Part shown: one piece after another, positions 13,885-33,869 of the stretch
How the letters are laid out: every line of letters begins with the position of its first letter
Numbering within the stretch: position 1 is the first letter of the stretch
DNA from: a virus
Direction: 5' to 3' (one strand)
IMG/VR virus record: IMGVR_UViG_3300050821_005432
Coordinates: 1 to 38,085 of that record
DNA: 38,085 bases
Program-made: the position numbers and the translations under genes
Notes under the pieces: generated by a model
Databases searched by the model: none
What the model was told of the DNA's origin: nothing
Seen by the model: only the letters and a program-made list of their open reading frames with translations

Positions 13885-16373
13885 TAGAATATCTCCACCG
13901 AGTGCGTGGCCTCGCTGCGCAAGCCGTTACGATCAATCGTCACGAGCGTCACGAAGTAGGTTCCTTCTTGTGAGTACGTGTGTTCGGTGATAAGCTGGTT
14001 GCCCGCTGAAAATGCACCGTCACCAAAGTTCCATTCGCGGAAGATAATGGCACCCGTACCCGGCGTTGATTCGTCAGTGAACTTGAACGATTTGACGGAC
14101 AGTGGTTTGATGGCGAATTCAGCGATCGGAGCTTTCTTGCCCACCAAGCGTTCCTCAGGCCACACAAGACGACCGAGGCTTGCATACCGAGGAATGATCT
14201 TGGGAGACTTGATCGTGGCGTTCTGACGCAGCGCACGCGCTCGTAGCTGTAGCTCCTTGCCTCGCGGCGAGAGCAGGATACCCTTGTGGTTGACGTTGAC
14301 GATCTCTCGGAAGTCGGTCCAGGGGGCGTAGTTGCTGTTCCACGGGTCGCTCACGGTCGAACGCGCGCTCCACTGCACGGTGCGCTCGAAGATCGAGATA
14401 TTATCGACCCACCATGAGGACGCAACTTTGGTCGGCTGGAGTATCTGTACGCGGTATTTACCAGTCTGCACGATCTCTGTCGTGGGGAGACGGATCGTGA
14501 CCTCCTGCCACTGGTTCGTTTCAAGTTCGGGCATGGGCAGCGGGATCACGGTACCTTCTTCGCTGACTAGCTGAGCGGTGATGTTGCCAAGCATCTCCTG
14601 GTTGAACGTGATGAACCCTTTGCTTGGGAAGAACGGCGGGAATTTACGCGGTCCAGGGAACGACGGAGGATGTTTGACTTCCACCGTTTCGACTGTACGT
14701 GGCTGGCCGGAGAACCAGATGAAGAAACGAATCTCAGCTTGCGTGAAGTCGATGAACTCAATGAGGTCAGTCGTAATGCCCACGTCTTTTTCGGTGCCGT
14801 TGGTATCGACACGGAAGCTTTCGCCACTGAGCGTGCGCGATTTATCGCGGGTTAGGATGACACCCGCTGATCCCGCTGGGGTGATTTCAAATCCCTGGTT
14901 CCACAGTTCTTCGTTGCCGGTGAAGTTAGCGAATAGCTGGGCTCCGTCAACTGGAGTAAAACTCGTCAGCGGAGTTGACTTGTATTCAGCGAAGACCACG
15001 CTACGCGGACGGATCGAACGCACGTAGGCATCATTGTCGGCGAGCAAGGCTTTCCACCCTACACGTCCTTGGCGACGACGGAATACGCCATCGTCTTCGA
15101 TCACCGTGGAATCGAAGAGTGGTTCCTGCACTACGGATTTGTCTTTGTTCAGGGCGAAGATGCGCACACGCGCGCTAGAGTCTTCCAGTGAGCACACCAT
15201 GAGGTATTCGAGGTTGTTGTCCAACGGTGGTACTTTGGGGAAGATGTAACCCGGCAGCACCGAGTTGGTCATGATGAGCTTTGTTTTTCCTTCGCCCCAT
15301 TTGAAGGTAAAGGTGATCCAGCTTTGCTCGACGGGGCTCGGTACAGACAGGCGCTCCAGGTCTTTCATCTGCTCCAGTTGATCGAAGCGCGACATGGGCT
15401 GTTTGTCGAATTCACCAACGGTGCGGGGTACGAACTCTTCCGTTCCAAGGTCTGGCTGTGGGTGTCCGTCTAGCTGTGACTGCGTGACTCCGATGAGATC
15501 AAGCTGCGTCTGAAAGATCAAGGGCTCCTGGCGCATATACAAGACGACTTCGTTCTGTTTTGTCTGTGAGCCGGGATTGATGACGACGCCGAATTCGGTA
15601 TCCACAGGGCGTGGGTCGTTGTAGCCCGGTAGGAGGTTGGCCTTCCAGAGAATACCCTGATCTAGGACTGGTCCATCCGTGACATCACCGTTTAGGGGAG
15701 TCGGCTTGCGCAACATGCCATTCCAGTTGTCGAAGTCTACCGTTGACACAACCCACCCTGGCTTCCCTTCTGTCGCGGCGAGAACGAGCTTCATTCCCAT
15801 GACGTAGACGGTGCCCGATTTTCCTACGTTGCAGACGATCTTGATTCGCACGCCGGTAATCGCGGCGAGGTCGATTTCGTTTTGTTCTAGGGTGGAGCGT
15901 TCGATTATGAATTGGCTGTCTCCTTCGATAATCGCTTTGAGGCTTTCCGACAGAGCAACTGTGGCAGTCAATTTGGTGTTGGAGCAACGCCCTTCTGGGT
16001 CGGATGTGATTTCAATCCTGCTCTGAGCGATGTTGATAGCTTCCAACGGGAATTTGGGTAGCGCAAACGTGAATAGATCATCGTCGGTGAACCCAGTCGA
16101 TAGGTCAACTGGGCGACTCGGAGTGATCGATTCGGATTCCGTCACGTTTTCGGCTAGGATTTCGATAGCCGGGTATTTGGACACTGCTGTCAGGTAGCCG
16201 AATTTACCCTTGGTCCATTCCTCTCCTGAGATCGACAAGAAGGTGCGCAGGTCAACGTGGCGCTGGAACGCTAGTTGTTCTTTGGTTTCCGTTTCAAAGG
16301 AATCGTAGTACAGCCATTCACGCTCAGTGAACTCCTCGGTGAGTGGTACATTTGATCGTTCGCGTTCAAGCAT
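13884..16373 (-). CDS. Large tail fibre / receptor-binding protein with C-terminal PKD domain
   Basis: The 829-aa protein starts in a TAATG overlap with the upstream fibre gene and ends in TAATG with the next. It is almost entirely beta-structured. Residues of about 560-690 look like a carbohydrate-binding jelly-roll (ITFNQ, NQWQEVTIRLP, WWVDNISIFE). The last 65 residues are a PKD domain with EWNFGDGAF and HTYSQEGTYFVTLVT. The central part contains another sandwich of unknown type (WITFTFKW, EYLMVCSLED). No coiled coil or collagen region is seen. It likely extends from the baseplate and contacts host wall polysaccharide. The assignment rests on domain style and position; no close homologue can be named. 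Confidence 0.6.
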   Translation of the reverse strand: MLERERSNVPLTEEFTEREWLYYDSFETETKEQLAFQRHVDLRTFLSISGEEWTKGKFGYLTAVSKYPAIEILAENVTESESITPSRPVDLSTGFTDDDLFTFALPKFPLEAINIAQSRIEITSDPEGRCSNTKLTATVALSESLKAIIEGDSQFIIERSTLEQNEIDLAAITGVRIKIVCNVGKSGTVYVMGMKLVLAATEGKPGWVVSTVDFDNWNGMLRKPTPLNGDVTDGPVLDQGILWKANLLPGYNDPRPVDTEFGVVINPGSQTKQNEVVLYMRQEPLIFQTQLDLIGVTQSQLDGHPQPDLGTEEFVPRTVGEFDKQPMSRFDQLEQMKDLERLSVPSPVEQSWITFTFKWGEGKTKLIMTNSVLPGYIFPKVPPLDNNLEYLMVCSLEDSSARVRIFALNKDKSVVQEPLFDSTVIEDDGVFRRRQGRVGWKALLADNDAYVRSIRPRSVVFAEYKSTPLTSFTPVDGAQLFANFTGNEELWNQGFEITPAGSAGVILTRDKSRTLSGESFRVDTNGTEKDVGITTDLIEFIDFTQAEIRFFIWFSGQPRTVETVEVKHPPSFPGPRKFPPFFPSKGFITFNQEMLGNITAQLVSEEGTVIPLPMPELETNQWQEVTIRLPTTEIVQTGKYRVQILQPTKVASSWWVDNISIFERTVQWSARSTVSDPWNSNYAPWTDFREIVNVNHKGILLSPRGKELQLRARALRQNATIKSPKIIPRYASLGRLVWPEERLVGKKAPIAEFAIKPLSVKSFKFTDESTPGTGAIIFREWNFGDGAFSAGNQLITEHTYSQEGTYFVTLVTIDRNGLRSEATHSVEIF

Positions 16374-18751
16374 TAGTAGGTGAACCAGACGCTTTCTTCC
16401 CCATAGACGACTCCATTGTTTTCGACCGGGAAGGTTTCAACATTGAAGTCACTGAGTTCGGTATTCGTGTCGTCGGTCCCGGCCTCAATGTAGAGCCCCG
16501 TGTCTGATGATACCGAAAATTGGTTGCGCAGGAAGGCCAATTCTTTGAGTCCCGCGAAGTATGCACGATCGTTTTCGAATTTGCCGTTGAGTTCCTTGTA
16601 TTCGTGACGACAGGTGACCCAGAAGTACATCACGGGCATCGATTCATCGAGCACGATAGCTTGCGTGTCCAGTCCAGAGACAGCGATGGTCGAGGTACCA
16701 CGGAATTGCGGTTCTCCCTCGACTGGATAGCTTGGTGCGTTGTTGGCGTTGGTGGCTGCGCGCTGCCCGAGGAGGGTGAGAGGATCGGCCCTTGCGGCAG
16801 GGGGCTTCAGGTAGGTGTTGAGGGTTATTTCGATGCGGCGCAGAGTTTCAGGGTCAACGCGGTTGGATGCTGGCGGTGCAATGGATGGCGTAGGCGTTGG
16901 GTGTTCCGGCGAAGACGGTCCTTGGATCAAGTCTTCGATCAGGGGCTTGTAGCCTAGTTCGAGTGCATCGTATACAACACCTACGCGCTTGGATGTGAAG
17001 GCTGGCAACACGAGTTCTGCCAAGAATGGGGTGGCTACCCAGTCCGGGAATAGTTTGTACGTGGTCGGCTTCTGATAGTCGCCTGGTTCGTAGGGGCGAG
17101 CCTGTAGCTGGCTGAACTCGATCTTGATGAACTTGGCTGTGATAGGTTCAGGCAATGCATACGTTGTCTTGACGGATGTCACAAACGATTGTGGTACGTG
17201 AATCCATAGCTTCTGTTCCCACTCTTCTTCTGTCATTTCCCCACCTTCAGGGGTGCCGGTGAGATCATTCGTGTAGTAGACGTTGAAGGCTACGCCCGGC
17301 GTAATCGGATCGAGGATGATACTGTCGATCACAACGGGTTCATCAGAAAGCTCGGGTTCGGTTAGTTCAATAGACGCAGAGCGACCGCGCTGGTTTTCCC
17401 ACTTGATGCTTGCCATATCGCCGTCGATGTACGGGGCTGCTACTGTGCCCGAGTTAGCCATCGCTGCATCGAGGTAGAAGGTGCGCGCGTTTGTCTCGTT
17501 AGCCACGGTGCGAACGCCTGCTAGAGTTTCCCCGCTTTCGATCGGGTTCAGGGTGACAGAGAAGCGCTGCCATTCTGGTGTGACGGTTACGACTTCTTCC
17601 GCTTTGCCGGTAATCGAGTTGCCAATTTCTAGCACCAATTGGTAACTCCCGACGTTGCTGCGGACCCACACGGAGAAGGTGATTGGTTTCGCTAGGCCCA
17701 CTGAGATAGGGGTGAAAGCGCCTTCGGGTTCGTGATAGCGACCTTTGGCGTGTGCGACTGTGTTGACTTCGAGTGAGTTCAGACCGCGCTCAGCTTCGAT
17801 CGAGTTGACGACCTTGATAGTGGCGAGAGTTTCAAGGATGCTGAAGGCCAAGACCGCCGGGAGCTTCTGACGAGCTTTGAAGCTGGCTTCTCCTTCTTTG
17901 CCCGCGAGAACTTCTTTTGCAGGGAGTGCCGGTGTCATGAGTTTTTCTTCGATGACCGGCTGCACCTGCCATGCGAAAGGCGCTTGCCCTACGATGTCAT
18001 ACTCGAAGCTGGGGTTGAGCACCGTGTTGATGACGCCATAGATCGGAGTCGAGGGGAAGGTGCGCAAATCTGAGTAGTGGCTGGTGACCGCGAACCTAGA
18101 TGGCTGCGGTGCGGAGAGCCAGAACCCCGAGTTGGTATTCGCCCCGACAGGAGCTTGCGCACTGGAGTGGATGGCGACTGAGCGGTATGGGTCCCCCAGG
18201 AAGTCTGTGCCCGCGTCTGCGACCAAGCCGAGGAGACGGAAGGCGAATGACGCAGGAGGCGCTAGAAGGGCTTTACCGTTGCTCTGAAGGGCTTCTACGA
18301 ACCCAGGCAGCGGGTTGGGCTGCGCGTAGTAGAGCTTTTCGATCCCCGACACGATCTGGATGCCGATGCGTAGCTCGGAGACGTTCGTGGTCATGCTGAC
18401 ATCAACCGGGATTTCCTCGCCCAGAATGGCGTCGATCCAGATGCGTTCTCCTTCGGCCTGAGCGCCCGTGGCAGTCCCTTTAGCTAGGACCTCCCATTCT
18501 GAGTTGCCGAAATTGTGCTGTTCGATGGTGTAGTTGAACGAGGCTGTCGCGGCAGCTTCTTTCTCGACGGCAGCTAGAATCTGAAACCCAGAGATACCGG
18601 GGAGGCGCGTCTGGCCAGTTTTGACGCCTCGCAGGTAGTCTTCTGGCAAGCGAAACTCCTGATAATAGAAGTTAGGGCCAGGGGAAAGTGACGCCGTGAC
18701 GACGTTTTGGTCGATTACGACTCCGCTGTATTCGGCGCACAGGTTAGCCAT
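16373..18751 (-). CDS. Large tail fibre / baseplate protein with carbohydrate-binding-like domain
   Basis: The start is ATG 18751; a GTG one codon earlier (18754) is in frame. CATAAT lies 5 nt before the ATG, and the start region is part of a 35-bp repeat found again at 21454-21488. The product is about 792 aa. A CBM-like jelly-roll lies around 245-450 (VLNPSFEYD near its start, EWQRFSVTLNP, then YIDGD at its end). It is followed by a second sandwich with ITAKFIKIEFSQ, similar to discoidin-type domains, at about 455-610. A Pro-rich linker (PTPTPS) precedes a C-terminal domain with YFWVTCRHEY. A role in recognising surface glycans is inferred from these domains and from location downstream of the baseplate genes. 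Confidence 0.6.
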   Translation of the reverse strand: MANLCAEYSGVVIDQNVVTASLSPGPNFYYQEFRLPEDYLRGVKTGQTRLPGISGFQILAAVEKEAAATASFNYTIEQHNFGNSEWEVLAKGTATGAQAEGERIWIDAILGEEIPVDVSMTTNVSELRIGIQIVSGIEKLYYAQPNPLPGFVEALQSNGKALLAPPASFAFRLLGLVADAGTDFLGDPYRSVAIHSSAQAPVGANTNSGFWLSAPQPSRFAVTSHYSDLRTFPSTPIYGVINTVLNPSFEYDIVGQAPFAWQVQPVIEEKLMTPALPAKEVLAGKEGEASFKARQKLPAVLAFSILETLATIKVVNSIEAERGLNSLEVNTVAHAKGRYHEPEGAFTPISVGLAKPITFSVWVRSNVGSYQLVLEIGNSITGKAEEVVTVTPEWQRFSVTLNPIESGETLAGVRTVANETNARTFYLDAAMANSGTVAAPYIDGDMASIKWENQRGRSASIELTEPELSDEPVVIDSIILDPITPGVAFNVYYTNDLTGTPEGGEMTEEEWEQKLWIHVPQSFVTSVKTTYALPEPITAKFIKIEFSQLQARPYEPGDYQKPTTYKLFPDWVATPFLAELVLPAFTSKRVGVVYDALELGYKPLIEDLIQGPSSPEHPTPTPSIAPPASNRVDPETLRRIEITLNTYLKPPAARADPLTLLGQRAATNANNAPSYPVEGEPQFRGTSTIAVSGLDTQAIVLDESMPVMYFWVTCRHEYKELNGKFENDRAYFAGLKELAFLRNQFSVSSDTGLYIEAGTDDTNTELSDFNVETFPVENNGVVYGEESVWFTY

Positions 18752-18780
18752 CACCGATTATGAGTACGAAGTCGCCTAGT
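18746..18780. repeat. 35-bp direct repeat, copy 1
   Basis: Thirty-five bases from AGCCATCACC to GTCGCCTAGT are identical to positions 21454-21488 in the same orientation. Copy 1 spans the first codons and CATAAT leader of the minus-strand fibre gene and ends just upstream of the promoter of the 96-aa plus-strand gene. A shorter degenerate match (AGCCATCAGCCATTATG) starts at 33261, at another minus-strand start. Confidence 0.9.
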
Positions 18781-18785
18781 CCTGT

Positions 18786-18793
18786 GCTATCAT
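18786..18793 (+). promoter_or_regulatory. Extended -10 promoter (TGC-TATCAT... form) for the 96-aa gene
   Basis: TGCTATCAT (hexamer TATCAT at 18788-18793) lies 7 nt before ATG 18801. No -35 match is seen at 17 bp. The first in-frame ATG (18792) sits inside the hexamer, so the second ATG is the more likely start of a leaderless message. Confidence 0.45.
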
Positions 18794-18800
18794 GGGGAGC

Positions 18801-19091
18801 ATGGATGGAGATCGTACAATCAACGATATAGTCAAAGATCAGATCGCGGCGCAAGTCAAGGTGATCAAACCACAGCCGGGTGACATTATTGTGGCCAAAC
18901 TGGGGATCGTGGACATGGGCGAGGGTATGCCACCGTGGATTCCCAACGTCGATGAATTGGTCATGGCGCGAGAAGACCTTGAACTAGTACTACCAGAGGG
19001 CGTTGAGGCACTCGTGTACCATATGGGCCTTGAATTTGAGGTCTTGAGTGACCTCTCAGAGGCCGACCGCGTTCTTGTGACACAACCCTAA
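18801..19091 (+). CDS. Orphan plus-strand protein of unknown function (96 aa)
   Basis: This lone rightward gene is set between two leftward tail genes. It has its own -10 box 7 nt before the start chosen here (ATG 18792 would add three residues), and its stop overlaps the stop of the opposing gene. The product is soluble and acidic, with Val/Ile-rich strands (VIKPQPGDIIVAKLG, LVLPEGVEALVYHMG) and a VDMGEGMPPW segment. There is no signal peptide, membrane segment or Cys. I do not recognise the family. Its arrangement is that of a moron: an independently transcribed extra gene, possibly expressed when the tail operon is silent. Confidence 0.6.
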   Translation: MDGDRTINDIVKDQIAAQVKVIKPQPGDIIVAKLGIVDMGEGMPPWIPNVDELVMAREDLELVLPEGVEALVYHMGLEFEVLSDLSEADRVLVTQP

Positions 19092-21046
19092 GGTGCTACA
19101 TTGCGCCCGATGCGCAAGTTGCGAATCTCAACGCTGTAAGGGAACGTCAAACCTTTTTCCGGACGGGTAAACTCGAACCGGATGAACCGTGTGTAGATCA
19201 TGGCTCCTAGTGACGTGCTGACATTCATGGTGATGAGCGACCACTGGTTGAGATTCTTGGCTTCGTAAGATGTGCTCTGCGTGGATGAGGCTTCGCGTTC
19301 ATTGACGAGCGTCACCGGGATAAACCGGCGCTCTGGTGCTGCATCGAGCAGATCGTAACTCGCGGCGATCTTGAAAGGCTTCTGCGAGATTTCAAATGAC
19401 AGGAAGTTGACAGCTTGCACCGCACCGAAATCGATCTCTAGGAAGTCCGACCCCGATAGGCGCTCTAGCGATGACCAGAAGGGTGCAGTTTCGGTTGGCG
19501 CTCCTTTGACCTGCGCTAGGTTCTGATAGACGGCCGGGTAGATCGAGTTCACCAAGGGTTCCGGACCTACTTTGGTCGTGAGGAGTTCGGGAGGATTGAC
19601 AGCCGCATCGATAGCTTTGAATTCTTCGCGCGGGTTTTTGAAGACGGAGAGGAATGGGTACTGCGCCTGCTGCGAAGCAGAGAAGACACCTATGTGTTCA
19701 TCTTTGAAGTTTTCAAGTTCGTTGAGATGTTCCGCGCCCTCTTCGGTGTACGCGACAGCCGCAGCGATGTTGTGGAAGTTGACGTAGTTTGCGTGCTGCC
19801 CGTTGATTGCCACGGGAGCCTCATTCTCCACACCCGGTTCGATCCACGTAGTGGCGCTTATGGGAGGCCACGGGAGGCCACGCTTACCTGTCACGTACCT
19901 CAGAACTTCGATGAATTCTGAGTCGGCGAACGACGCATTGGGAATCTGTCGCCTGGTGAGCCCAGGTGCTTTACCGGGGGTTAGGATGGCGGTCACTGGC
20001 TTGATGTTGTCGATGGCTACCTGTGCGAAGTACCAGTCTTCAGTCGGGATGACCGCTTCCTCACCGTCGGCCGAGACGCCAACCTGGTCAACGATGACTT
20101 CGATCTCGATCAAATGGCTTTCGTTATCAGCTAGCGAGTTCTGGGTGATGAGGAACTGCGGCATAGGTCTGTCCGCCAGTTCGTTGGTGAAACTGATAAC
20201 CAATGGGTTGCCAGGAAAGGGTCCGCCAGTAACCGATACGTTGCCTTTTCCGATCACGGGTAGCGCTTCGAGCGCAAGGGTAAGCTCTTCGAAATCTACA
20301 TCGAAGGGTAGCGCAAACGTGGTAGTGGTGTTCTGTACTTCTTCACCCTTGCGCCCTGGACCTAGCGGCATCGTGAGCTTGAACGTACCTGCGATTGCGT
20401 TGCCTTCCTCCACGGCGATCGTCTGCTGCGCGCTCTGAGGGTGTTCCTGTCGGGGAAGGAGGATGATCTCCTCGGTTGATTTGGTGAGGCCGATGAAAGC
20501 TAGCCCAAGCGGATCGTCTGAGAAGCCATCGTACAGCGCGTGGTAGTTCTCGATGACTTCCACAGCACGGTTGAGAGCCGACTTAGCAGCCAGGGTGATA
20601 CCGAGCACCGTACCTCCTGCGCGAACTGCCTTGAGGTAGTTGATGGCGCGGTTCTTGTATGAGGAGTCTGATTCCTGGATGCTCTCCCACTGTTCGTTAG
20701 TGAGGAGCCCTTCGGTGTCGTCCGTGTATGTCTCAGCCGCCAGGCGAGCGAACGAGAATGGTTCTGCATAGAAGGCGTCGAGTTCGGTGGTGCGAAGCCC
20801 GTTGGCTTCGATTTTCAGACGAGCCTCTAGGTAGTTCTGCTTGAGCGTACCGACACCTGCTGGACCAAGCAGCGTGTACATGAGCGCCACGAGGTTAGAG
20901 TCCAACGACTTGTTGTACAGGGTTTCAGGGAAAGCTTCAAGGTAACTGACAGGATGTTTCGGACCACCTAGCGGCTCGATGAATACCTGCTGGTTGATGG
21001 TGGTCGTGATGTCGGGGGTTTCTACTGTCGTTCCTAGTGATTCCAT
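19088..21046 (-). CDS. Baseplate protein (gpI-region) with C-terminal discoidin-like domain
   Basis: The 652-aa product follows the J-like gene in tail order. Residues 33-170 (YLEAFPETLY, NLVALMYTLLGPAGVG, LKQNYLEARL, YLKAVRAGG) match a helical N-terminal pattern I know from baseplate proteins of actinophages, in the position of P2 gpI. Residues of about 207-325 look like an inserted beta domain (LALEALPVIGKGNVSVTGG) of a kind recurrent in phage tail proteins. Residues 533-650 resemble an F5/8 (discoidin) sandwich (FLEIDFGAVQAVNFLSFEI, TRFIRFEFT), probably glycan-binding. The ATG at 21046 lies only 25 bp from the divergent HNH start at 21072. Its own upstream region appears to have been displaced by the inserted HNH and collagen-like genes. 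Confidence 0.6.
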   Translation of the reverse strand: MESLGTTVETPDITTTINQQVFIEPLGGPKHPVSYLEAFPETLYNKSLDSNLVALMYTLLGPAGVGTLKQNYLEARLKIEANGLRTTELDAFYAEPFSFARLAAETYTDDTEGLLTNEQWESIQESDSSYKNRAINYLKAVRAGGTVLGITLAAKSALNRAVEVIENYHALYDGFSDDPLGLAFIGLTKSTEEIILLPRQEHPQSAQQTIAVEEGNAIAGTFKLTMPLGPGRKGEEVQNTTTTFALPFDVDFEELTLALEALPVIGKGNVSVTGGPFPGNPLVISFTNELADRPMPQFLITQNSLADNESHLIEIEVIVDQVGVSADGEEAVIPTEDWYFAQVAIDNIKPVTAILTPGKAPGLTRRQIPNASFADSEFIEVLRYVTGKRGLPWPPISATTWIEPGVENEAPVAINGQHANYVNFHNIAAAVAYTEEGAEHLNELENFKDEHIGVFSASQQAQYPFLSVFKNPREEFKAIDAAVNPPELLTTKVGPEPLVNSIYPAVYQNLAQVKGAPTETAPFWSSLERLSGSDFLEIDFGAVQAVNFLSFEISQKPFKIAASYDLLDAAPERRFIPVTLVNEREASSTQSTSYEAKNLNQWSLITMNVSTSLGAMIYTRFIRFEFTRPEKGLTFPYSVEIRNLRIGRNVAP

Positions 21047-21057
21047 AGCAAACCCGC

Positions 21058-21063
21058 TATACT
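21058..21063 (+). promoter_or_regulatory. -10 box TATACT for the HNH gene at 21072
   Basis: CGCTATACT lies 8 nt before ATG 21072, with no Shine-Dalgarno and no -35 match. It shares GCTATACT with the boxes at 759, 8646 and 35289, but lacks the TG of the extended form. Confidence 0.5.
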
Positions 21064-21071
21064 GATTAGAG

Positions 21072-21443
21072 ATGGGTTACTTTGATTGTTGGCAATGTCC
21101 GGGCCTGAGCAAAGACTATGGCTCTGTGCGATTTGATGGACGAGTACGGGTCGCTCATCGGGTGGCTTATGAACTGTGGTTCGACATGCAGATTCCAAAG
21201 GGATACGAACTTCATCACACTTGCGAAAATAGACGTTGTTACAATCCTGCTCATCTACAACTGACGCGGCCAAAGCGACATCCGGGCACCACGGGCTCAA
21301 TGAATCGTGCAAAGACTTGTTGCCCGCAAGGGCATCCCTATACGCCTGAGAACACTTATTTCCGTAGAAAAGGTCCGCATCGAATTTGCCGAACCTGTGA
21401 TTTGGCCAATCAAAAGAAACGGCGGATGCAGAATGCGGTGTAA
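21072..21443 (+). CDS. HNH homing endonuclease (HNH_3-like)
   Basis: The 123-aa protein has the compact HNH arrangement RVAHRVAYELW, then GYELHHTCENRRCYNPAHLQL, giving H48/H49, N53 and H61 as the likely ββα-metal residues. Cysteines C51, C56 and a C-terminal ribbon (C83/C84, H88, C106, C109) may bind zinc. The tail is basic. Free-standing enzymes of this type nick or cut intron- or gene-free alleles to spread. It is oriented against the tail operon, with its own -10 box and an apparently leaderless start. It is placed between the J-like and gpI-region genes next to a collagen-like moron. Confidence 0.85.
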   Translation: MGYFDCWQCPGLSKDYGSVRFDGRVRVAHRVAYELWFDMQIPKGYELHHTCENRRCYNPAHLQLTRPKRHPGTTGSMNRAKTCCPQGHPYTPENTYFRRKGPHRICRTCDLANQKKRRMQNAV

Positions 21444-21453
21444 TTGAGAGTTC

Positions 21454-21488
21454 AGCCATCACCGATTATGAGTACGAAGTCGCCTAGT
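21454..21488. repeat. 35-bp direct repeat, copy 2
   Basis: The sequence is identical to 18746-18780. Here the minus-strand CATAAT plus start-codon segment no longer precedes a fibre gene: leftward it runs into the antisense of the HNH gene. The copy ends 11 nt before the -35 of the collagen-like gene. It looks like a duplicated gene-start segment carried in with, or left by, the inserted genes. Confidence 0.9.
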
Positions 21489-21499
21489 TGCGAAGGCCC

Positions 21500-21528
21500 T
21501 TGACATCCGCCTCAAGGCTTGCTAGACT
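21500..21528 (+). promoter_or_regulatory. Near-consensus sigma70 promoter of the collagen-like gene
   Basis: TTGACA, 17 bp, TAGACT, with TG one base before the -10 (TTGCTAGACT). The -35 and spacing are perfect. Transcription should start near 21535, leaving a leader of about 27 nt with AAAGGA five bases before ATG 21562. This is the strongest promoter seen in the window. Confidence 0.88.
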
Positions 21529-21561
21529 CCCGCGCTCTATCCAAACGAACAAAGGATTACC

Positions 21562-22224
21562 ATGAGCAAGAAGTTCCTTGTTGGAATCGTTGCTGCGGCT
21601 GCGCTGGGCTTGATCCCCGCGACTGCTTCGGCCTCGTCCACCAATCTCTGCGTCTCGTCGTCGCAGTTGGTGTCCGTGACAACGCCTCTGACGCTCGGAG
21701 GATGTCTCTCGGAATACACGTTGACGACATTCGGCGAAGTAGGACCAGAAGGAAAAGAAGGCAAAACCGGAGCGACTGGAGCAACCGGAGCAACAGGACC
21801 AGAAGGTCCGAAAGGTGCCGAAGGAGAAGTCGGTGCTCAGGGACTGAAAGGCGAAAAAGGAGAAAAAGGAACGACGGGTGCAACGGGCGCAACCGGACCA
21901 GAAGGCAAAGAAGGAAAAGGTTTGACATTTGGCGCGTATACGGGATCGGTGGCAATGAGTCCAGAATCCTCGGGTAGCGAATCTTATGGCACAACGCCTA
22001 CAGAGGTAATTGTCACTGCGACGCTTACAAAGAAAGAAAAAGAGTCAGCATTTTGTAGGATCAAGGTTGGCGGTAAAGAAGTGACCCAGCTTCTTTGGGA
22101 AAACTTCAAAACCGAAGTAACACCCCATCTGAACGCGACTTTTATCGTTCCCCCTAGCACAACGTGGGAATGGAAAGAATGTTCGGGTTGGCTATCACTC
22201 AGCTACGTTTCGCTGTCCATATAA
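21562..22224 (+). CDS. Secreted collagen-like protein (moron)
   Basis: The 220-aa product has a Sec signal peptide: lysines at 3-4, a hydrophobic core FLVGIVAAAALGLIP, and a likely cut after ATASA (residue 25). A linker with C30 and C48 follows. Residues 58-120 are 21 uninterrupted Gly-X-Y triplets, many of them GAT, GPE, GKE and GEK, enough for a short triple helix. The last 100 residues are a globular beta domain with C165 and C207. The protein should be exported by the host and trimerise at the surface or outside. The gene runs against the tail operon with its own promoter, Shine-Dalgarno and terminator. A lysogenic-conversion or host-surface role is inferred; a virion fibre is unlikely because of the signal peptide. 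Confidence 0.85.
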   Translation: MSKKFLVGIVAAAALGLIPATASASSTNLCVSSSQLVSVTTPLTLGGCLSEYTLTTFGEVGPEGKEGKTGATGATGATGPEGPKGAEGEVGAQGLKGEKGEKGTTGATGATGPEGKEGKGLTFGAYTGSVAMSPESSGSESYGTTPTEVIVTATLTKKEKESAFCRIKVGGKEVTQLLWENFKTEVTPHLNATFIVPPSTTWEWKECSGWLSLSYVSLSI

Positions 22225-22248
22225 TCCTCACGCCGAGATAGGTTGAGA

Positions 22249-22285
22249 AGGCAGACCTAGTTTCGCTAGGTCTGTCTTCTTGTAT
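22249..22285 (+). terminator. Rho-independent terminator after the collagen-like gene
   Basis: AGGCAGACCTAG and CTAGGTCTGTCT form a 12-bp stem (one G-T pair) with loop TTTCG, followed by TCTTGT. It lies 25 nt after the collagen-like stop and 6 nt before the opposing J-like stop, so it probably serves both strands. Confidence 0.82.
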
Positions 22286-22290
22286 TGTGG

Positions 22291-24975
22291 CTAAGCCTTA
22301 CCCCAAACATTCTCTGCACGCGATCTGATGATCAGACCAGGAACGGTATCTCCTTCCTGCAACCCGGTCGGCAATGCAGGCAACTCATCATCACGCAGGA
22401 AGAAGTCGGAATCAAATGTATATTCACCCCCCGCTATCGGTTTATTTCGTTTCGGCACAGCGGGATAAAAGACGGTTGGGAGTATCTGTTTGCCGGACGC
22501 TGAGTATTCGATGCGGAATGAACGGATAGGTTCTGTAACTCCTACCGATGAACGCTGATCTTCGCTCACGACAACGGTCGCTGCCCCCAAGACTTTGTTG
22601 ATCTGTTCTTCAAGCTTGGCAGCGGTTGTACCTTCTTCAACTGGCTCAATTTCTTCTGTTCTTTCTGCTTCTCCTTTACCATACACAAGTTCATAAGCAC
22701 CGCGTTCTGGGTGACCTACTACGTATAGTGCTTGTATCTCTTTTTCACCACCGATGCCCCAGCGCACGCGATCCAAGAAGACGCCCTCTAGAGGTCGGCC
22801 GTCGATATCGGTCTGCCAGACGCGGATGAGGTTGGGGTCGTTCGGAACATCGTTTGACCAACGCACGTTCTGGACCCCGGCGACATTGTGAATCTGCGCG
22901 AGTAGGTCTGAGAGTCGGATAACGCTACCAAAGAACTGATCGGCAAAGAAGGTTTCGATCGCTTCATGGATGGCGTTGTTAACCGTCGAAGGCGTTGCCT
23001 GCGGAGCGTACACCACTGTGATGTCCAGCTTGAAGTAGCGCGGGTGAGCCCTGTGAGCAAGCACGTCTGTGGTGATCTGCCTGCTTGCCTCTAGTGCAGC
23101 CTGCAAGTCTTCGATGTTCTGGTCGTAGAAGTACGGTTCGACTTCCACGGTTTCCGGGCTTTCGCGTTCGCTGAAGCGTATCCCGGTGTATTCGGGCTCC
23201 GGTTTCACTGGGGTCGGGACGCCTTCTTCAGGGCCTCCGAGATCGGCAGGAATGGTTGCGCTCCACTCGATGCCATCGCGGGCGCGGATGGTGCCTCCGT
23301 AGCCCGAGACATCATGCACGAGCCAGTAGTGAACGCCTCGGTAGTATTTGCTTGTCCCGATCGTGATCTGTGCAGGAACGCCTAGCACCGGCTGCGAGAA
23401 GAGGGACGTGAGGATATTGCCTTCGAGCGGACGCTTCGTCGGTTCGCCGTCGCGTCGGTAGTTCTCGTAGTAGTACATGCTCGTGGGGTTGTCCACGAAC
23501 GCCTGCGAGTTGCCTGCTAGCGGAGCGGTGAAGATCGTAGAGGTTGACTGTTCGTTGGTGCCGTCAATGTAAACGTCTACGGCGTTCGTCACGTTGTGCA
23601 GGATGCTGTTACGCGACGCAGATGACGTGTAGGCATATTCGAACAGCACCACATCGTTCGGCGAGAGAGCCTTGACTGCTTCTTCTGACCCCAGGTAGAC
23701 GTTGATGAAGGTGACGTTCGGCTGGTTTTTACCCGTGATGTTGGTGCGCGGATCGACGCCGACGCCATCGATCATGGCGCGTAGCGTGTCACCCTGGAGG
23801 AGCGGTGGGTAGTTGAAGTCAAAATCCACTCCTTCGCGGAAGAAGAATTTGCTGATGCCAGATGTGATGTTGGATACGAAGACCGGCAGACCTTTCCAGA
23901 TTTCCTTTGCGAACGGGTTGGTAGACAAAGCGGTCGTCCACTTGTTGACGAGGGTTTCGTAGTACGGTTTCCATTCGCCCACGAATACCCAGCCGTCTTC
24001 AACCGCGCTGGCGAGAGGTTTGGAGATGACGATTTCCGTAGGCGATTTGATCGAGGAGACGGTACCCGATGAAGCGAGCGTGGGGCTATCTTCTGATTTG
24101 AAGACCTCGACAGGTTCCCCAACTTTGATACCGATCGTGGACGGGATGGTGACCACGGTGCCACCATTTGCTCCAGAGCCACGCACCATGACCGGATAGG
24201 GGTAGCCGAAGTAGGATTCCCCTCCGCCAAACGGATACGATGTCTGGTCGTCTCCGACCGGGACCTGGATGTACTCCTGGTATTTGGAGATCGGCCCAAT
24301 GACATTGGCCTTGGTACTGAAGGCTGTTGCTACGCAGAGCGCGAGGAACTGATCTTCGGTACCAGCAAGGTTACGGAAGACCGTGTTCTTGAAGCGCGTC
24401 TTGAGGCTATTGTCGTCTTCTTGATCGGTGCCTCCTTCGGTCGCTGCGGGGTTGGTGACTGATGTGATCCCCAACACAGGGGCGAACGACATGATCGTAA
24501 CGGCTTCAGCCGGGACGTTGCCGATGGACCCAGGAGTTTTCGCCTTGATCGGCACGAGCCCCGTTTCAGATTCTCCAACATGCAACGTGACTGTCGAGGT
24601 CGTTACGAATTCAGGCAAGACGCCATCGGTTGCCGTCGAGATATGAGACTTGAGGATTACCCCTGCCGGGATGACGATGTTGGCGGTCGCGGGAGTGTTG
24701 CGTTTGAACTTCACGAACCCTGTGGCGATCGTAGCCTTCTGTCGTTCGAAGCCAAACAACGACATGAAGTTGGTTAGGTTCGCGCCGAACTTGCTATCGA
24801 CGTTGAGCGCTTCCTGTAGCCCCACGAGATCGATGGAGTTTTCAGCGATGGCTCCTGACACCGTATCGAAGACGAGGCGCTCAGGTGTTCCTACTTCGGC
24901 AGAGATCGTCGGCTTGAGCAAACGAATCTGCGCAACCATCTGTTCTGCGATTTGGGTTTGAGTCAAGACAGGCAT
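22291..24975 (-). CDS. Baseplate J-like protein (gp47/gpJ family), enlarged
   Basis: The 894-aa protein starts at ATG 24975 inside the end of the HNH gene. The N-terminal 230 residues follow the gpJ pattern: an initial helix with IAEQMVAQIR, DTVSGAIAEN, a strand region with IPAGVILKS, then GLVPIKAKTPGSIGNVPAEAV and a conserved GGTDQEDD..LKTRF. The later FLALCVATAF and C-terminal LFAQIHNVAGVQNV-like segment (with LLAQIHNVAG) also fit. In the phage it connects the hub to the wedges and drives baseplate rearrangement on contraction. It is much longer than P2 gpJ (about 300 aa), with inserted beta domains between about 240 and 640. It follows the gp25-like gene, as in most contractile tails. Confidence 0.82.
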   Translation of the reverse strand: MPVLTQTQIAEQMVAQIRLLKPTISAEVGTPERLVFDTVSGAIAENSIDLVGLQEALNVDSKFGANLTNFMSLFGFERQKATIATGFVKFKRNTPATANIVIPAGVILKSHISTATDGVLPEFVTTSTVTLHVGESETGLVPIKAKTPGSIGNVPAEAVTIMSFAPVLGITSVTNPAATEGGTDQEDDNSLKTRFKNTVFRNLAGTEDQFLALCVATAFSTKANVIGPISKYQEYIQVPVGDDQTSYPFGGGESYFGYPYPVMVRGSGANGGTVVTIPSTIGIKVGEPVEVFKSEDSPTLASSGTVSSIKSPTEIVISKPLASAVEDGWVFVGEWKPYYETLVNKWTTALSTNPFAKEIWKGLPVFVSNITSGISKFFFREGVDFDFNYPPLLQGDTLRAMIDGVGVDPRTNITGKNQPNVTFINVYLGSEEAVKALSPNDVVLFEYAYTSSASRNSILHNVTNAVDVYIDGTNEQSTSTIFTAPLAGNSQAFVDNPTSMYYYENYRRDGEPTKRPLEGNILTSLFSQPVLGVPAQITIGTSKYYRGVHYWLVHDVSGYGGTIRARDGIEWSATIPADLGGPEEGVPTPVKPEPEYTGIRFSERESPETVEVEPYFYDQNIEDLQAALEASRQITTDVLAHRAHPRYFKLDITVVYAPQATPSTVNNAIHEAIETFFADQFFGSVIRLSDLLAQIHNVAGVQNVRWSNDVPNDPNLIRVWQTDIDGRPLEGVFLDRVRWGIGGEKEIQALYVVGHPERGAYELVYGKGEAERTEEIEPVEEGTTAAKLEEQINKVLGAATVVVSEDQRSSVGVTEPIRSFRIEYSASGKQILPTVFYPAVPKRNKPIAGGEYTFDSDFFLRDDELPALPTGLQEGDTVPGLIIRSRAENVWGKA

Positions 24976-25421
24976 ATGATTTTGTCTTTCTTCTGAAGAT
25001 TACAACTTGGATGTGCAGGCTGCACATTCACATATCCGTGCATACCGCCTTTGGCGAGCGGTATGCGATGATCGACGTGAAAGTCATCTTCTGTGACGAA
25101 CTCCTCGCAAATACCACACATGCCCCCGTGCATCTGGTAGACAACACGAGGGTCAACATCCTCGATGAATTGATTTTTCTTATAGGCGCGTCGCTTCATA
25201 GACCTAGCACGATGAAGCAATTTAGCATTGGGTTTTTCTATGTATTTGTGGTTGTCAGATTTGCGTTTTTCAGGGTCTCTGGGTACATACGGTTTACGTC
25301 TACTCTCTTGATTACGGCAGGTCGTGCATTCTGGTCTACAACCGTACTTTGACGTTGGATGCTTACCAAATTGATCAAGAGACTTGATCTCATTACATAT
25401 TTTACATTTCTTAGTTTGCAT
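24963..25421 (-). CDS. HNH homing endonuclease between gp25-like and J-like genes
   Basis: The 152-aa protein has an N-terminal C-x2-C ... C-x2-C ribbon (C6, C9, C32, C35), a basic helical middle, and an HNH domain at about 102-145: MCGIC, FHVDHRIPLAKGG, VNVQPAHPSCNL. It is a sense-strand insertion. Its ATG overlaps the gp25-like stop as TAATG, and its last 13 nt overlap the J-like start, so it sits in the operon without a separate promoter. The HNH core closely resembles that of the protein at 34836-35282, suggesting related elements at two sites. Confidence 0.85.
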   Translation of the reverse strand: MQTKKCKICNEIKSLDQFGKHPTSKYGCRPECTTCRNQESRRKPYVPRDPEKRKSDNHKYIEKPNAKLLHRARSMKRRAYKKNQFIEDVDPRVVYQMHGGMCGICEEFVTEDDFHVDHRIPLAKGGMHGYVNVQPAHPSCNLQKKDKIICLS

Positions 25422-30968: not shown

Positions 30969-33266
30969 CTATTGTCCTGGGGTGACGGGTTCAGCGCGCT
31001 GAGCCTGTTCAGCCTGGCGCATGACTGATTGCTCCGATGCCGTTTCGCCTGCTGCGTTGGGTGACGCCGCCTTGTTAGAGATCGGAGAACCACCTTCGTT
31101 CGATTCTGCCTTCGCTGCTGCGGCCGGGAACTTGAGTTTGAAGAACGCCTTAGCCGGACCAGACAATTCGATTTTGGCGTTTTCTTCATTCTGCTTTTCG
31201 ATACTGACCTTGTTGAGCTTTTCAAGCGCTTTGTAGATGTCGCCAGCCTGGTGGGTGACGCCCTCTTTCTTGATCTTGGCCAGTTCATCTGAGCTAACTC
31301 CCGCTGCTGCCGCTGTGGCGTACAAGCCTTTCGGTCCTTCGAGTTCGCCACGTAGTAGACCTTGCTGAGAGCCGGTGAGCTTGCCTGCCTTGGACGCCTT
31401 AGCCATTGCGCTCGTGTAAGCGGAGTGCCGTGAGTTCAGCTTTTCTTCTTCTGCTTCCAGTTCGCCCCTGACATCACCATACTTCGCTTCGTCCGAACTG
31501 AAGATATCGCCACTCGGCATCTTGGACAGCTTGTCTTTGAGTTCGGTGACTCGCGTCTGCGTAGCGGACCATTCGTTGCGCGCTTTGATCAGCGATGCGC
31601 CATCCTTGCTCTTCTCGTTAGCCTGTTCCATCGCGTAGCGGTGCTGCTGGACCGCATTAGCCTCACCGAATCCACCTTGCACGGCTTCGAGCTTCGGTCC
31701 AATTTCTTTCAAGCGCTTCGCCTCTTCCGCCGTGATGCTCGGTTCGAGCATGTGAATGTAAGCGCCTTCCTTTTCAGCGGCAGTCTCAGTCACTTCGTAT
31801 TTGCCCGTGACCTTGTTGAGCGAGCGCGTATCGGTCTGCTTCGGTACGTAGCCCGCGACTTTCTTTACAGTTTCCCAGGCGTTGAGGGCAGCGGAGTTGC
31901 CCGACATACCTTGAATCTCCCAAGGCATGATGCCCTTACTGAGTGCTTGCACCTGGCCGAACTGCCCTTCGTTGATCCCCTGCACGAGGAGAGGATTCAT
32001 TTTGGTGACCTTGCCGATTTCACCATAGGCGGTCAAGCCGTGAATCATGGTCGATCCACCCTCGACAGATTTGGCCATGAACTCCTGCGCTTTGACGGCT
32101 TCTGCTTCAAGCGTCTGGTGAGTCATCTTGGCAGTTTCAGCAAGCTGTTCGATGCCCTGCGTCAGTTCTCCGATGTTGCCGGACCCTAGCTTGAGAGCGC
32201 TCGTGAATTCGGAAAGGACCTCGGGGTTTTTGAATCCTTTCTTCATCAGCGGTTCAAGGGCAAGGGCCAACGTCTCTTGTTCGCCTCCCATAGTCAGACC
32301 GAGCATCCCGCTGTTACGCTGGTTAGACCATCCCTGAGAGCCCAACGCCTGACGCAACGAGTTAGCTTCACCAAGGCCAATCCCCGATCCCCCGATGGCT
32401 GCTTCCGCTGCGTTGACGACGGTACCCAGACCTTGTTTACCAGCGGGCGATGTGATGGCCGCTAGCGGGTTGGGGATACCAAAGTAGTGGCTAGCGCCAA
32501 GGAACCCTCCGCCTAGTCCTTCACCCTGTGGTGAGAAGCCCAGCGATGCGCCAGCGTTGGACGCACCGAATCCGATGTCGAGCAGAGGGGAGAGATATGT
32601 TTTCGCAATGCTTCCTACGACGGCTGCCTGTGATGCCTTCGCCAGTGTTCCGGAAACATTGCCTGCTGCTATCGGGCTTTGTTTTTCGAGCCATTCTTGT
32701 GCTGGCATTGCCTCCGAACCCGCTTCGCTAGCATAAGTTTCGTAATTGCTCAAAGCTTTTTTACCTGAAACCTGAGAAGCCAATTTCAATACCGCATCCA
32801 ATCGCCAATCCCCGAAGCTCGGAATGCGAATTGGTTCTTCCTCTAGGCGTTGAGCTTCAACGTTAGTCTTGCCAGCAATGGCACTTTGTTCTCTTGCCCA
32901 CTGCGATGGCGCTCCAGCTTGACCACCTGTAGCTCCAAACATTTCATTCCATTGAGGTCCCGTACCCGTCCCAACGAGTGACGATCCTCTTGTTGCGAAA
33001 GAGGCATCTGGATTCAATTGACCTGGCTCATGCGTTCCGATTTGGGCTCCTGGACCAGCCTGTGATACAAATTTGCGCACTAGCGCCGATTGATCTAGCT
33101 CTTCAAGTCCTGTGTCTGTGATCCGTTTTCTTTGCGCAAGCGCTAGCTCCATCGTCGGGGCTGTAAGCGCCTGGATATGTTCGTCAAGGCGCGATACGGC
33201 CACATACAACTGTTCGTTTGCACGCCGACCCGCTTGTGCGGGATCAATATCATCTGCCGTAGCCAT
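30969..33266 (-). CDS. Tail tape-measure protein
   Basis: The 765-aa protein is the longest helical, Ala/Gly/Glu-rich protein of the tail operon and directly follows the chaperone genes, the defining context for a tape measure. Hydrophobic segments lie at about 215-275 (SQAAVVGSIAKTYLSPLL, GASLGFSPQG, LGASHYFGIPNPLAAI), as in tape measures that insert in membranes. Long charged helices fill the C-terminal half (NSRHSAYTSAMAKASK, DIYKALEKLNKVSIEKQ). By the rule of roughly 0.15 nm per residue it would set a tail of about 115 nm. No lysozyme or peptidase motif is visible here; those are in the hub. CATAAT lies 5 nt before the ATG. Confidence 0.75.
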   Translation of the reverse strand: MATADDIDPAQAGRRANEQLYVAVSRLDEHIQALTAPTMELALAQRKRITDTGLEELDQSALVRKFVSQAGPGAQIGTHEPGQLNPDASFATRGSSLVGTGTGPQWNEMFGATGGQAGAPSQWAREQSAIAGKTNVEAQRLEEEPIRIPSFGDWRLDAVLKLASQVSGKKALSNYETYASEAGSEAMPAQEWLEKQSPIAAGNVSGTLAKASQAAVVGSIAKTYLSPLLDIGFGASNAGASLGFSPQGEGLGGGFLGASHYFGIPNPLAAITSPAGKQGLGTVVNAAEAAIGGSGIGLGEANSLRQALGSQGWSNQRNSGMLGLTMGGEQETLALALEPLMKKGFKNPEVLSEFTSALKLGSGNIGELTQGIEQLAETAKMTHQTLEAEAVKAQEFMAKSVEGGSTMIHGLTAYGEIGKVTKMNPLLVQGINEGQFGQVQALSKGIMPWEIQGMSGNSAALNAWETVKKVAGYVPKQTDTRSLNKVTGKYEVTETAAEKEGAYIHMLEPSITAEEAKRLKEIGPKLEAVQGGFGEANAVQQHRYAMEQANEKSKDGASLIKARNEWSATQTRVTELKDKLSKMPSGDIFSSDEAKYGDVRGELEAEEEKLNSRHSAYTSAMAKASKAGKLTGSQQGLLRGELEGPKGLYATAAAAGVSSDELAKIKKEGVTHQAGDIYKALEKLNKVSIEKQNEENAKIELSGPAKAFFKLKFPAAAAKAESNEGGSPISNKAASPNAAGETASEQSVMRQAEQAQRAEPVTPGQ

Positions 33267-33296
33267 CAGCCATTATGTCGTTGTTTGGCTCTAGTT

Positions 33297-33304
33297 GCTA
33301 GACT
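33297..33304 (+). promoter_or_regulatory. Extended -10 promoter (TTGCTAGACT) for the HNH gene at 33312
   Basis: TGCTAGACT (hexamer TAGACT at 33299-33304) ends 7 nt before ATG 33312; another ATG at 33309 is only 4 nt away. There is no good -35 at 17 bp. It lies in the 45-bp divergent gap with the tape-measure start. Confidence 0.6.
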
Positions 33305-33311
33305 GGTGATG

Positions 33312-33869
33312 ATGCGCATTTGCCAAGAAGAAGGCTGCTCAGAACCGTGTAAGATCGGGGGTAACGATGTTTGTTTTCATTTGTGCCCGGAACATTACGC
33401 GATTTACAAACGACGCAAGAACCGCGAGAGCTATCAACGTCACAAAGAGAAGCGCATTCGGGAAGCAGTTCGATGGCAAATTGAGAATCCTGGGCGTTAC
33501 AAAGCTCGACAAGTGGCTTATCGCGCTCAGGAGAAGGCTAAAGAGACGGAGCGACAACGATCCAAAAGGCGGTATGTTCAAGACCCCGCTGCCAATCGTC
33601 AACGGGTGCGTCGATATGAACATCGTAAGAGGGCTGCCGCAGGAGACTATACCGAGGATCAACTACAGTCCCGTATTGACTTTTATGGCCGACGTTGCTA
33701 TCTCTGCGGTTGCGATTGGGATGCCCTGCCGCAAACCGAGAAACACCTTGAGCATGTCATTCCACTTAGTCGAGGCGGTACCAATTGGCCATCCAACATA
33801 CGTCCAGCTTGCGGGCCATGCAATAGACATAAGTGGTCTAAGCCTCTTGACAATGCCCTTGCGGCTTGA
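33312..33869 (+). CDS. HNH homing endonuclease opposite the tail operon
   Basis: From ATG 33312 the product is 185 aa. The N-terminus has a Cys/His cluster (C4, C9, C13, C21, C25, H28) that may bind zinc, a long basic helical middle (40-110), and an HNH domain at about 125-174: RRCYLCGCDWD, LEHVIPLSRGG, NIRPACGPCNRHK. It is transcribed against the tape-measure and chaperone genes from its own extended -10, with an apparently leaderless start. The gene for a small membrane protein follows on the same strand. Confidence 0.85.
   Translation: MRICQEEGCSEPCKIGGNDVCFHLCPEHYAIYKRRKNRESYQRHKEKRIREAVRWQIENPGRYKARQVAYRAQEKAKETERQRSKRRYVQDPAANRQRVRRYEHRKRAAAGDYTEDQLQSRIDFYGRRCYLCGCDWDALPQTEKHLEHVIPLSRGGTNWPSNIRPACGPCNRHKWSKPLDNALAA

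What the first reader, a model, noticed from the sequence alone, without database searches (positions are those of the whole stretch)
21500..22285. Self-contained moron for a secreted collagen-like protein
A consensus promoter, a Shine-Dalgarno, a signal-peptide protein with 21 uninterrupted Gly-X-Y triplets and a Cys-bearing C-terminal domain, and a 12-bp-stem terminator form a complete unit inside and against the tail operon. Gly-X-Y stretches are known in phage fibres and in bacterial surface proteins, but a signal peptide points to export from the host cell rather than virion assembly. It may alter the host surface, for example by adhesion, biofilm formation or blocking other phages.
Basis: partly seen in the sequence, partly recalled or inferred. 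Interest (0 to 1): 0.72.

Follow-up and report, generated by a model that had tools for sequence, protein, structure and literature searches.

The report
Phage-borne secreted collagen-like protein gene
A soil-type tailed phage carries, wedged backwards between two of its tail genes, a self-contained gene for an exported collagen-like protein built from the same modules as surface proteins of its probable bacterial hosts, and its relatives carry similar genes elsewhere, so it probably remodels the surface of the infected cell rather than the virus particle.

Summary
ORF 21562-22224 (+, 220 aa) has a textbook Sec signal peptide, exactly 21 uninterrupted Gly-X-Y triplets (residues 58-120) and a six-stranded beta C-terminal domain. 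It has its own TTGACA-17-TAGACT promoter, a Shine-Dalgarno and a very stable hairpin. Only 1 of 32 gene-like ORFs in the window looks exported: this one. With an HNH endonuclease gene it forms a 1,244-bp insert, reversed relative to the tail operon, between baseplate J and a DUF7297 virion gene. Close relatives (92-93% identical) have those genes adjacent. No viral relative was found for the C-terminal domain, but related phages carry other signal-peptide/collagen genes, most with the same promoter type; in one, an HNH_3 gene again lies directly upstream. The N- and C-terminal modules recur in secreted proteins of Thermoleophilia (soil Actinomycetota). Best reading: a host-derived, exported, probably trimeric surface or matrix protein made independently of the late operon. 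The biological role (receptor masking, adhesion, aggregation) is inferred. No integrase was found in 160-170 kb relatives, so action during lytic infection is more likely than lysogenic conversion.

The parts
21562..22224 (+). Exported collagen-like protein, 220 aa: signal peptide ~1-24, Cys-pair N-module 25-57, 21 Gly-X-Y 58-120, linker, six-strand beta C-terminal domain ~145-220
21500..21528 (+). sigma70/sigmaA-type promoter TTGACA-17-TAGACT with TG upstream of -10
   Evidence: same type upstream of further signal-peptide genes in relatives
21552..21557 (+). Shine-Dalgarno AAAGGA
   Evidence: direct reading
22240..22285 (+). Strong hairpin (about 17 bp stem) with imperfect T-rich tail, between convergent genes; probable terminator
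   Evidence: z -5.3 on +, -4.0 on -; not listed by the mechanical scan; similar hairpins after the collagen genes of relatives G402 and G404
21072..21443 (+). HNH_3 endonuclease (homing-type), upstream part of the same insert
   Evidence: HNH_3 gene also directly upstream of the secreted collagen gene in relative G402
21449..21488 (-). Copy (95% over 40 nt) of the leader and start of tail gene 16373-18754 (original at 18741-18780); possible restart signal for the tail operon
21047..22290 (.). Whole insert, absent from close relatives L082, L083
22291..24975 (-). Upstream neighbour: baseplate J-like / baseplate wedge protein
19088..21046 (-). Downstream neighbour: DUF7297 / virion structural protein

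Best explanation
It is a moron: a host-derived gene acquired by a large lytic-type actinobacteriophage myovirus together with an HNH endonuclease gene, inserted into the 2-bp gap between two tail genes. Host RNA polymerase with the housekeeping sigma factor transcribes it from its own promoter, independently of the late tail operon; the hairpin stops this transcription before it runs further against the baseplate gene. The protein is exported by the Sec pathway and cleaved after TASA. Three chains form a short collagen triple helix capped by a beta-sandwich head, with disulfides forming outside the cell, and the trimer is released or held at the cell surface or matrix. It most likely imitates the host's own collagen-like surface proteins and changes the surface of the infected cell, by masking receptors against competing phages or by altering adhesion and aggregation. 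Shown: gene anatomy, insert and empty site, collagen run, shared modules with Thermoleophilia secreted proteins, recurrence in relatives. Inferred: expression, export, trimerisation, surface role.
For: Anatomy. Empty site: baseplate J and DUF7297 genes adjacent in L082 and L083; a different small ORF or HNH gene at the same boundary in L084 and L085/L086. Recurrence: relative G402 has HNH_3, then signal-peptide/collagen protein (341-aa ORF, 318 aa from its probable ATG), then a second signal-peptide protein, on the strand opposite its neighbours; G404 has an ortholog (40% over about 350 aa) plus another signal-peptide/collagen gene; G403 has one more. Most carry the same promoter type, and the G402 and G404 collagen genes end in strong hairpins. 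Host origin: the N-module recurs in Thermoleophilia secreted proteins; the C-terminal domain recurs after a collagen stretch in a Solirubrobacteraceae contig with metK- and der-like genes; the C-terminal domain of the G402 protein matches 20 of 349 Thermoleophilia genomes (51% at best, in a protein with the same signal-peptide/Cys-pair/collagen/C-domain layout beside an ammonium-transporter-like gene) but 0 of 346 genomes of the Streptomyces class. Moron and HNH genes differ from core genes in GC3. No viral relative of the C-terminal domain was found.
Against: No expression or export data and no SignalP. The C-terminal domain model is of moderate confidence (pLDDT 67). No sortase signal, lipobox or transmembrane anchor is seen, so surface retention is unproven. 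The host is inferred, not shown. Collagen stretches alone match many tail fibres.
Confidence: 0.62

Rival explanations
1. Accessory virion fibre or tail decoration protein: the hydrophobic N-terminus is a membrane-like or assembly segment, and the gene sits among tail genes because it is a tail gene.
For: Located between baseplate genes; collagen stretches match many phage tail fibre families; most viral collagen-like relatives are long proteins without a signal peptide, fibre-like in sequence.
Against: Only exported-looking ORF of 32 in the window; wrong strand for the tail operon; own promoter and hairpin; absent from close relatives with an otherwise conserved tail module; related proteins lie outside the tail module in G402-G404; module relatives in bacterial secreted proteins.
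Confidence: 0.1
2. Neutral hitchhiker: cargo carried by a homing HNH element into a permissive gap, with no benefit to the phage.
For: HNH_3 directly upstream and co-oriented in both the window and G402; the boundary is an insertion hotspot with unrelated ORFs; GC3 marks recent arrival.
Against: Several related phages keep intact open reading frames of the same class at different loci with promoters and hairpins; these phages hold many HNH genes, so adjacency is weak evidence.
Confidence: 0.15
3. Envelope or lysis accessory: acts at the host wall or membrane as part of a lysis or wall-remodelling module rather than on adhesion or exclusion.
For: In G403 and G404 the signal-peptide/collagen genes lie beside small multi-span membrane (holin-like) proteins and membrane-anchored collagen proteins, and in G403 beside an L,D-transpeptidase (YkuD) gene.
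Against: In the window and G402 there is no such neighbourhood; a housekeeping-type promoter suggests early or constitutive rather than late expression.
Confidence: 0.13

Closest known systems
Secreted collagen-like proteins of Thermoleophilia (e.g. G208:C82, G389:C207, G002:C272)
   Same: Signal peptide, Cys-pair N-module, collagen run and/or beta C-terminal domain; sister phage proteins share the full layout with G208:C82
   Different: The window protein combines an N-module and a C-domain each seen in a different genome; no single full-length bacterial ortholog was found
Bacterial surface collagens with a globular head (BclA of Bacillus spores; Scl proteins of streptococci)
   Same: Short collagen stalk with globular domain, outside the cell; the C-domain model gives weak C1q/TNF-type matches, BclA among them
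   Different: No sequence relation outside Gly-X-Y; no LPXTG as in Scl; phage-encoded
Prophage collagen-like proteins of E. coli O157:H7 (EPcl proteins; PMC3368898)
   Same: Phage-borne collagen stretch
   Different: Those carry phage fibre N- and C-terminal domains and are fibre-type; no signal peptide is reported in the passages read
Phage morons with signal peptide acting in superinfection exclusion (Ltp lipoprotein type; Cutibacterium phage gp41, PMC11480721)
   Same: Exported phage protein thought to act outside the host membrane
   Different: Lipoprotein/HTH-type fold; no collagen

Membership tests
Moron (independently transcribed gene acquired between phage operon genes) | Absent from close relatives at an otherwise conserved site | tested here: met
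   BpJ and DUF7297 genes adjacent in L082 and L083
Moron | Own promoter and terminator | tested here: met
   Sequence level only; transcription not measured and T-tract imperfect
Moron | Composition differs from neighbours | tested here: met
   GC3 0.48 (HNH 0.46) against 0.61-0.70
Moron | Changes host phenotype | not testable with these tools
   needs expression or deletion
Collagen-like protein (PF01391) | Significant Gly-X-Y match above the curated cut-off | tested here: met
   36.3 bits, cut-off 27.2; 21 triplets
Collagen-like protein | Triple helix formed | not testable with these tools
   needs circular dichroism or crystallography
Sec-exported protein | n-, h- and c-regions with AxA site | tested here: met
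   (home-made criterion)
Phage tail fibre protein | Non-collagen regions homologous to fibre or tail proteins | tested here: inconclusive
   Listed PHROG matches centre on the collagen stretch; C-domain has no viral sequence match and only weak fold matches to fibres among many others
C1q/TNF-like head domain (as in BclA) | Jelly-roll trimer fold | tested here: inconclusive
   Foldseek E 0.03 or worse; VIA Z up to 6.2 with many unrelated beta-sandwiches
HNH homing-associated cargo | Adjacent HNH gene inserted together | tested here: met
   mobility itself untested

The most novel reading that the evidence does not exclude
A clade of large lytic phages of Thermoleophilia maintains and reshuffles a set of host-derived, self-transcribed collagen-like surface proteins that build a phage-specified extracellular coat during infection, excluding competitors or binding cells together.
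Probability: 0.22. Interest if true: 0.75.

Novelty: new variant of a known kind. Interest (0 to 1): 0.52.

Why it matters
Collagen in phages is usually read as tail fibre. Here it comes with a signal peptide, its own promoter, host-type modules and a reversed position, and the pattern recurs in related phages. That makes a testable case that lytic phages take over host surface-protein genes to act outside the cell, in a bacterial group (Thermoleophilia) common in soil. It also shows that collagen-like ORFs in phage genomes should be screened for signal peptides before being called fibres.

Tried and rejected
Close relatives in cultured phages: no match at 1e-5. Viral relatives of the C-terminal domain alone or as a two-row profile: none. 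Viral hits to the whole protein: 80 loci, matching through Gly-X-Y and mostly long proteins without a signal peptide. C-domain as a single sequence in Thermoleophilia: only weak hits; the two-row profile gave G389 at E 2e-4, a secreted protein with the domain before the collagen run. The antisense ORF 21034-21462 (-), which starts in the copied leader, was considered as a gene and set aside: long antisense ORFs are common in this window. Whole-protein structure model too poor (pLDDT 45). Fold search gives only weak beta-sandwich matches. Lysogenic conversion disfavoured: no PF00589 or PF00239 in eight related records. Actinomycetia phage DSL-LC01 annotated collagen-like genes include very large ORFs near the small terminase gene, not of this kind as far as looked at. 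Literature searches found no described phage-borne secreted collagen of this type; the library is incomplete.

Full report
What is there. The window is an IMG/VR virus record of 38,085 bp. ORF 21562-22224 (+) encodes 220 aa. Residues 1-24 are a typical Sec signal peptide (MSKK, a hydrophobic core, then PATASA/SS). The Gly-X-Y run covers residues 58-120 without interruption, 21 triplets; 20,000 shuffles of the protein reach at most 7, and the next best ORF in the window has 3. Pfam Collagen scores 36.3 bits against a cut-off of 27.2. Cysteines are at 30, 48, 165 and 207. The C-terminal 100 residues alone are modelled as six beta strands at moderate confidence (pLDDT 67, about 80 in the core strands).

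Control signals. TTGACA-17-TAGACT at 21500-21528, with TG before the -10, ends 33 nt before the ATG; AAAGGA precedes the ATG. In a single sequence this promoter is near chance expectation. Comparison lifts it: the pattern TTGAC-(16-18)-TANNNT occurs 40 times in 704 kb of strand scanned, yet stands upstream of the ATG of this gene, of the collagen genes of G402, G404 (11790-10828 in L210) and G403, and of a second signal-peptide gene in G402 and G406. The pattern was defined after inspection, and the last two genes are orthologs. The hairpin after the stop codon folds at -30.8 kcal/mol, z -5.3; strong hairpins also follow the collagen genes of G402 and G404, not clearly that of G403. Its T-tract is imperfect and the mechanical scan did not list it, so 'terminator' is probable rather than proven.

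The insert. The neighbours are a baseplate J-like gene (22291-24975, -) and a DUF7297 virion gene (19088-21046, -). In relatives L082 and L083 (93% and 92% identical in baseplate J) these two genes are adjacent; in L083 the stop of the first and the start of the second are separated by 2 bp. In the window 1,244 bp lie between them, holding the HNH_3 gene 21072-21443 and the collagen gene, both against the operon. The same boundary holds a different small ORF in L084 and an HNH-like ORF in L085/L086, so it is an insertion hotspot. GC3 is 0.48 for the collagen gene and 0.46 for the HNH gene against 0.61-0.70 for core phage genes. Between the two inserted genes lies a 40-nt copy (95%) of the leader and start of tail gene 16373-18754. 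Versions of that leader precede the same gene in relatives, so 18741-18780 is probably the original. On the minus strand the copy could restart expression of the tail genes behind the insert; this is inference.

Recurrence. Searching the full records of seven relatives with this protein found further signal-peptide/collagen genes. In G402 the order HNH_3, signal-peptide/collagen (318 aa from its probable ATG), second signal-peptide protein stands on the strand opposite its neighbours. In G406 the corresponding place has a different HNH gene followed by an ortholog of the second exported protein. G404 has an ortholog of the G402 collagen protein (40% over about 350 aa) and another signal-peptide/collagen gene; G403 has one. 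In these two records they sit near small multi-span membrane proteins and membrane-anchored collagen proteins, and in G403 beside a YkuD L,D-transpeptidase gene. A simple signal-peptide criterion picks 1 of 32 gene-like ORFs in the window, the collagen gene, and picks these genes among a small minority in the relatives.

Origin. The N-module (Cys pair followed by Y-x-L-T) matches a Thermoleophilia secreted protein (41% over 67 residues) and others including a 225-aa protein with a short collagen run. The C-domain matches a collagen-like protein of a Solirubrobacteraceae contig that also carries metK- and der-like genes, named here from sequence. The C-domain of the G402 protein matches 20 of 349 Thermoleophilia genomes, best 51% in a protein with the same overall layout and an ammonium-transporter-like neighbour gene, and 0 of 346 genomes from the Streptomyces class. 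Nearest cultured phages by baseplate J and DUF7297 are actinobacterial myoviruses such as Rhodococcus E3, Mycobacterium Myrna/I3 and Gordonia Pupper at about 30-35%. The probable host is therefore a member of Thermoleophilia, by inference. No tyrosine or serine integrase was found.

Mechanism. Shown at the sequence level: an acquired, independently controlled gene for an export-type collagen-like protein with host-type modules. Inferred: host polymerase transcribes it, Sec exports it, the chains trimerise through the collagen stalk and head, and the product modifies the infected cell's surface. Receptor masking or adhesion and aggregation are the likeliest roles; the data do not separate them. 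Signal-peptide phage proteins acting in superinfection exclusion have been proposed in an actinobacterial phage (PMC11480721), which is a precedent of function type, not a relative.

Comparison and verdict. As a moron and as an export-type collagen-like protein it meets the testable criteria. As a tail fibre it is unlikely but not excluded. The novelty lies in the combination: host-type exported collagen modules as recurrent, self-transcribed cargo, twice found beside an HNH_3 gene, in large lytic-type actinobacteriophages. I rate it a new variant of a known kind, interest 0.52.

Noticed in passing
18741-18780 and 21449-21488: 40-nt direct repeat (95%), the leader and start region of tail gene 16373-18754 (-), copied beside the insert; versions of the leader (GACTTCg...TAAT..TGATG) precede this gene in relatives and may be a late promoter or leaderless start.
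   Followed up: partly
18792-19091 (+): Second reversed small gene in the tail operon (99 aa) with an extended -10-like TGTGCTATCAT; homolog in the same place in L084. Weak PHROG match to a portal profile.
   Followed up: partly
L083 12643-12857: Another insert between the DUF7297 and next tail gene, apparently a small reversed ORF with its own TATACT-like box: reversed mini-genes in tail-gene gaps look like a habit of this phage group.
   Followed up: no
L209 10958-12656 (G403): L,D-transpeptidase (YkuD) gene next to a signal-peptide/collagen protein whose C-terminus is Lys/His-rich; such an enzyme could in principle fix the protein to peptidoglycan.
   Followed up: no
L210 7818-9296 and L209 9550-10038 (-): N-terminally membrane-anchored collagen-like proteins (MTEKRFR.F..AS) beside small multi-span membrane proteins in both 168-170 kb relatives; possible lysis or envelope module.
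   Followed up: no
24963-25421 (-) and 33177-33869 (+): Two more HNH endonuclease genes in the window, so homing-type genes are frequent in this phage.
   Followed up: no
L185 2257-3135 (G003): Thermoleophilia secreted protein with the same Cys-pair N-module followed by ASVSGG..N-type repeats resembling trimeric adhesin heads (weak Pfam match to an ice-binding beta roll).
   Followed up: no
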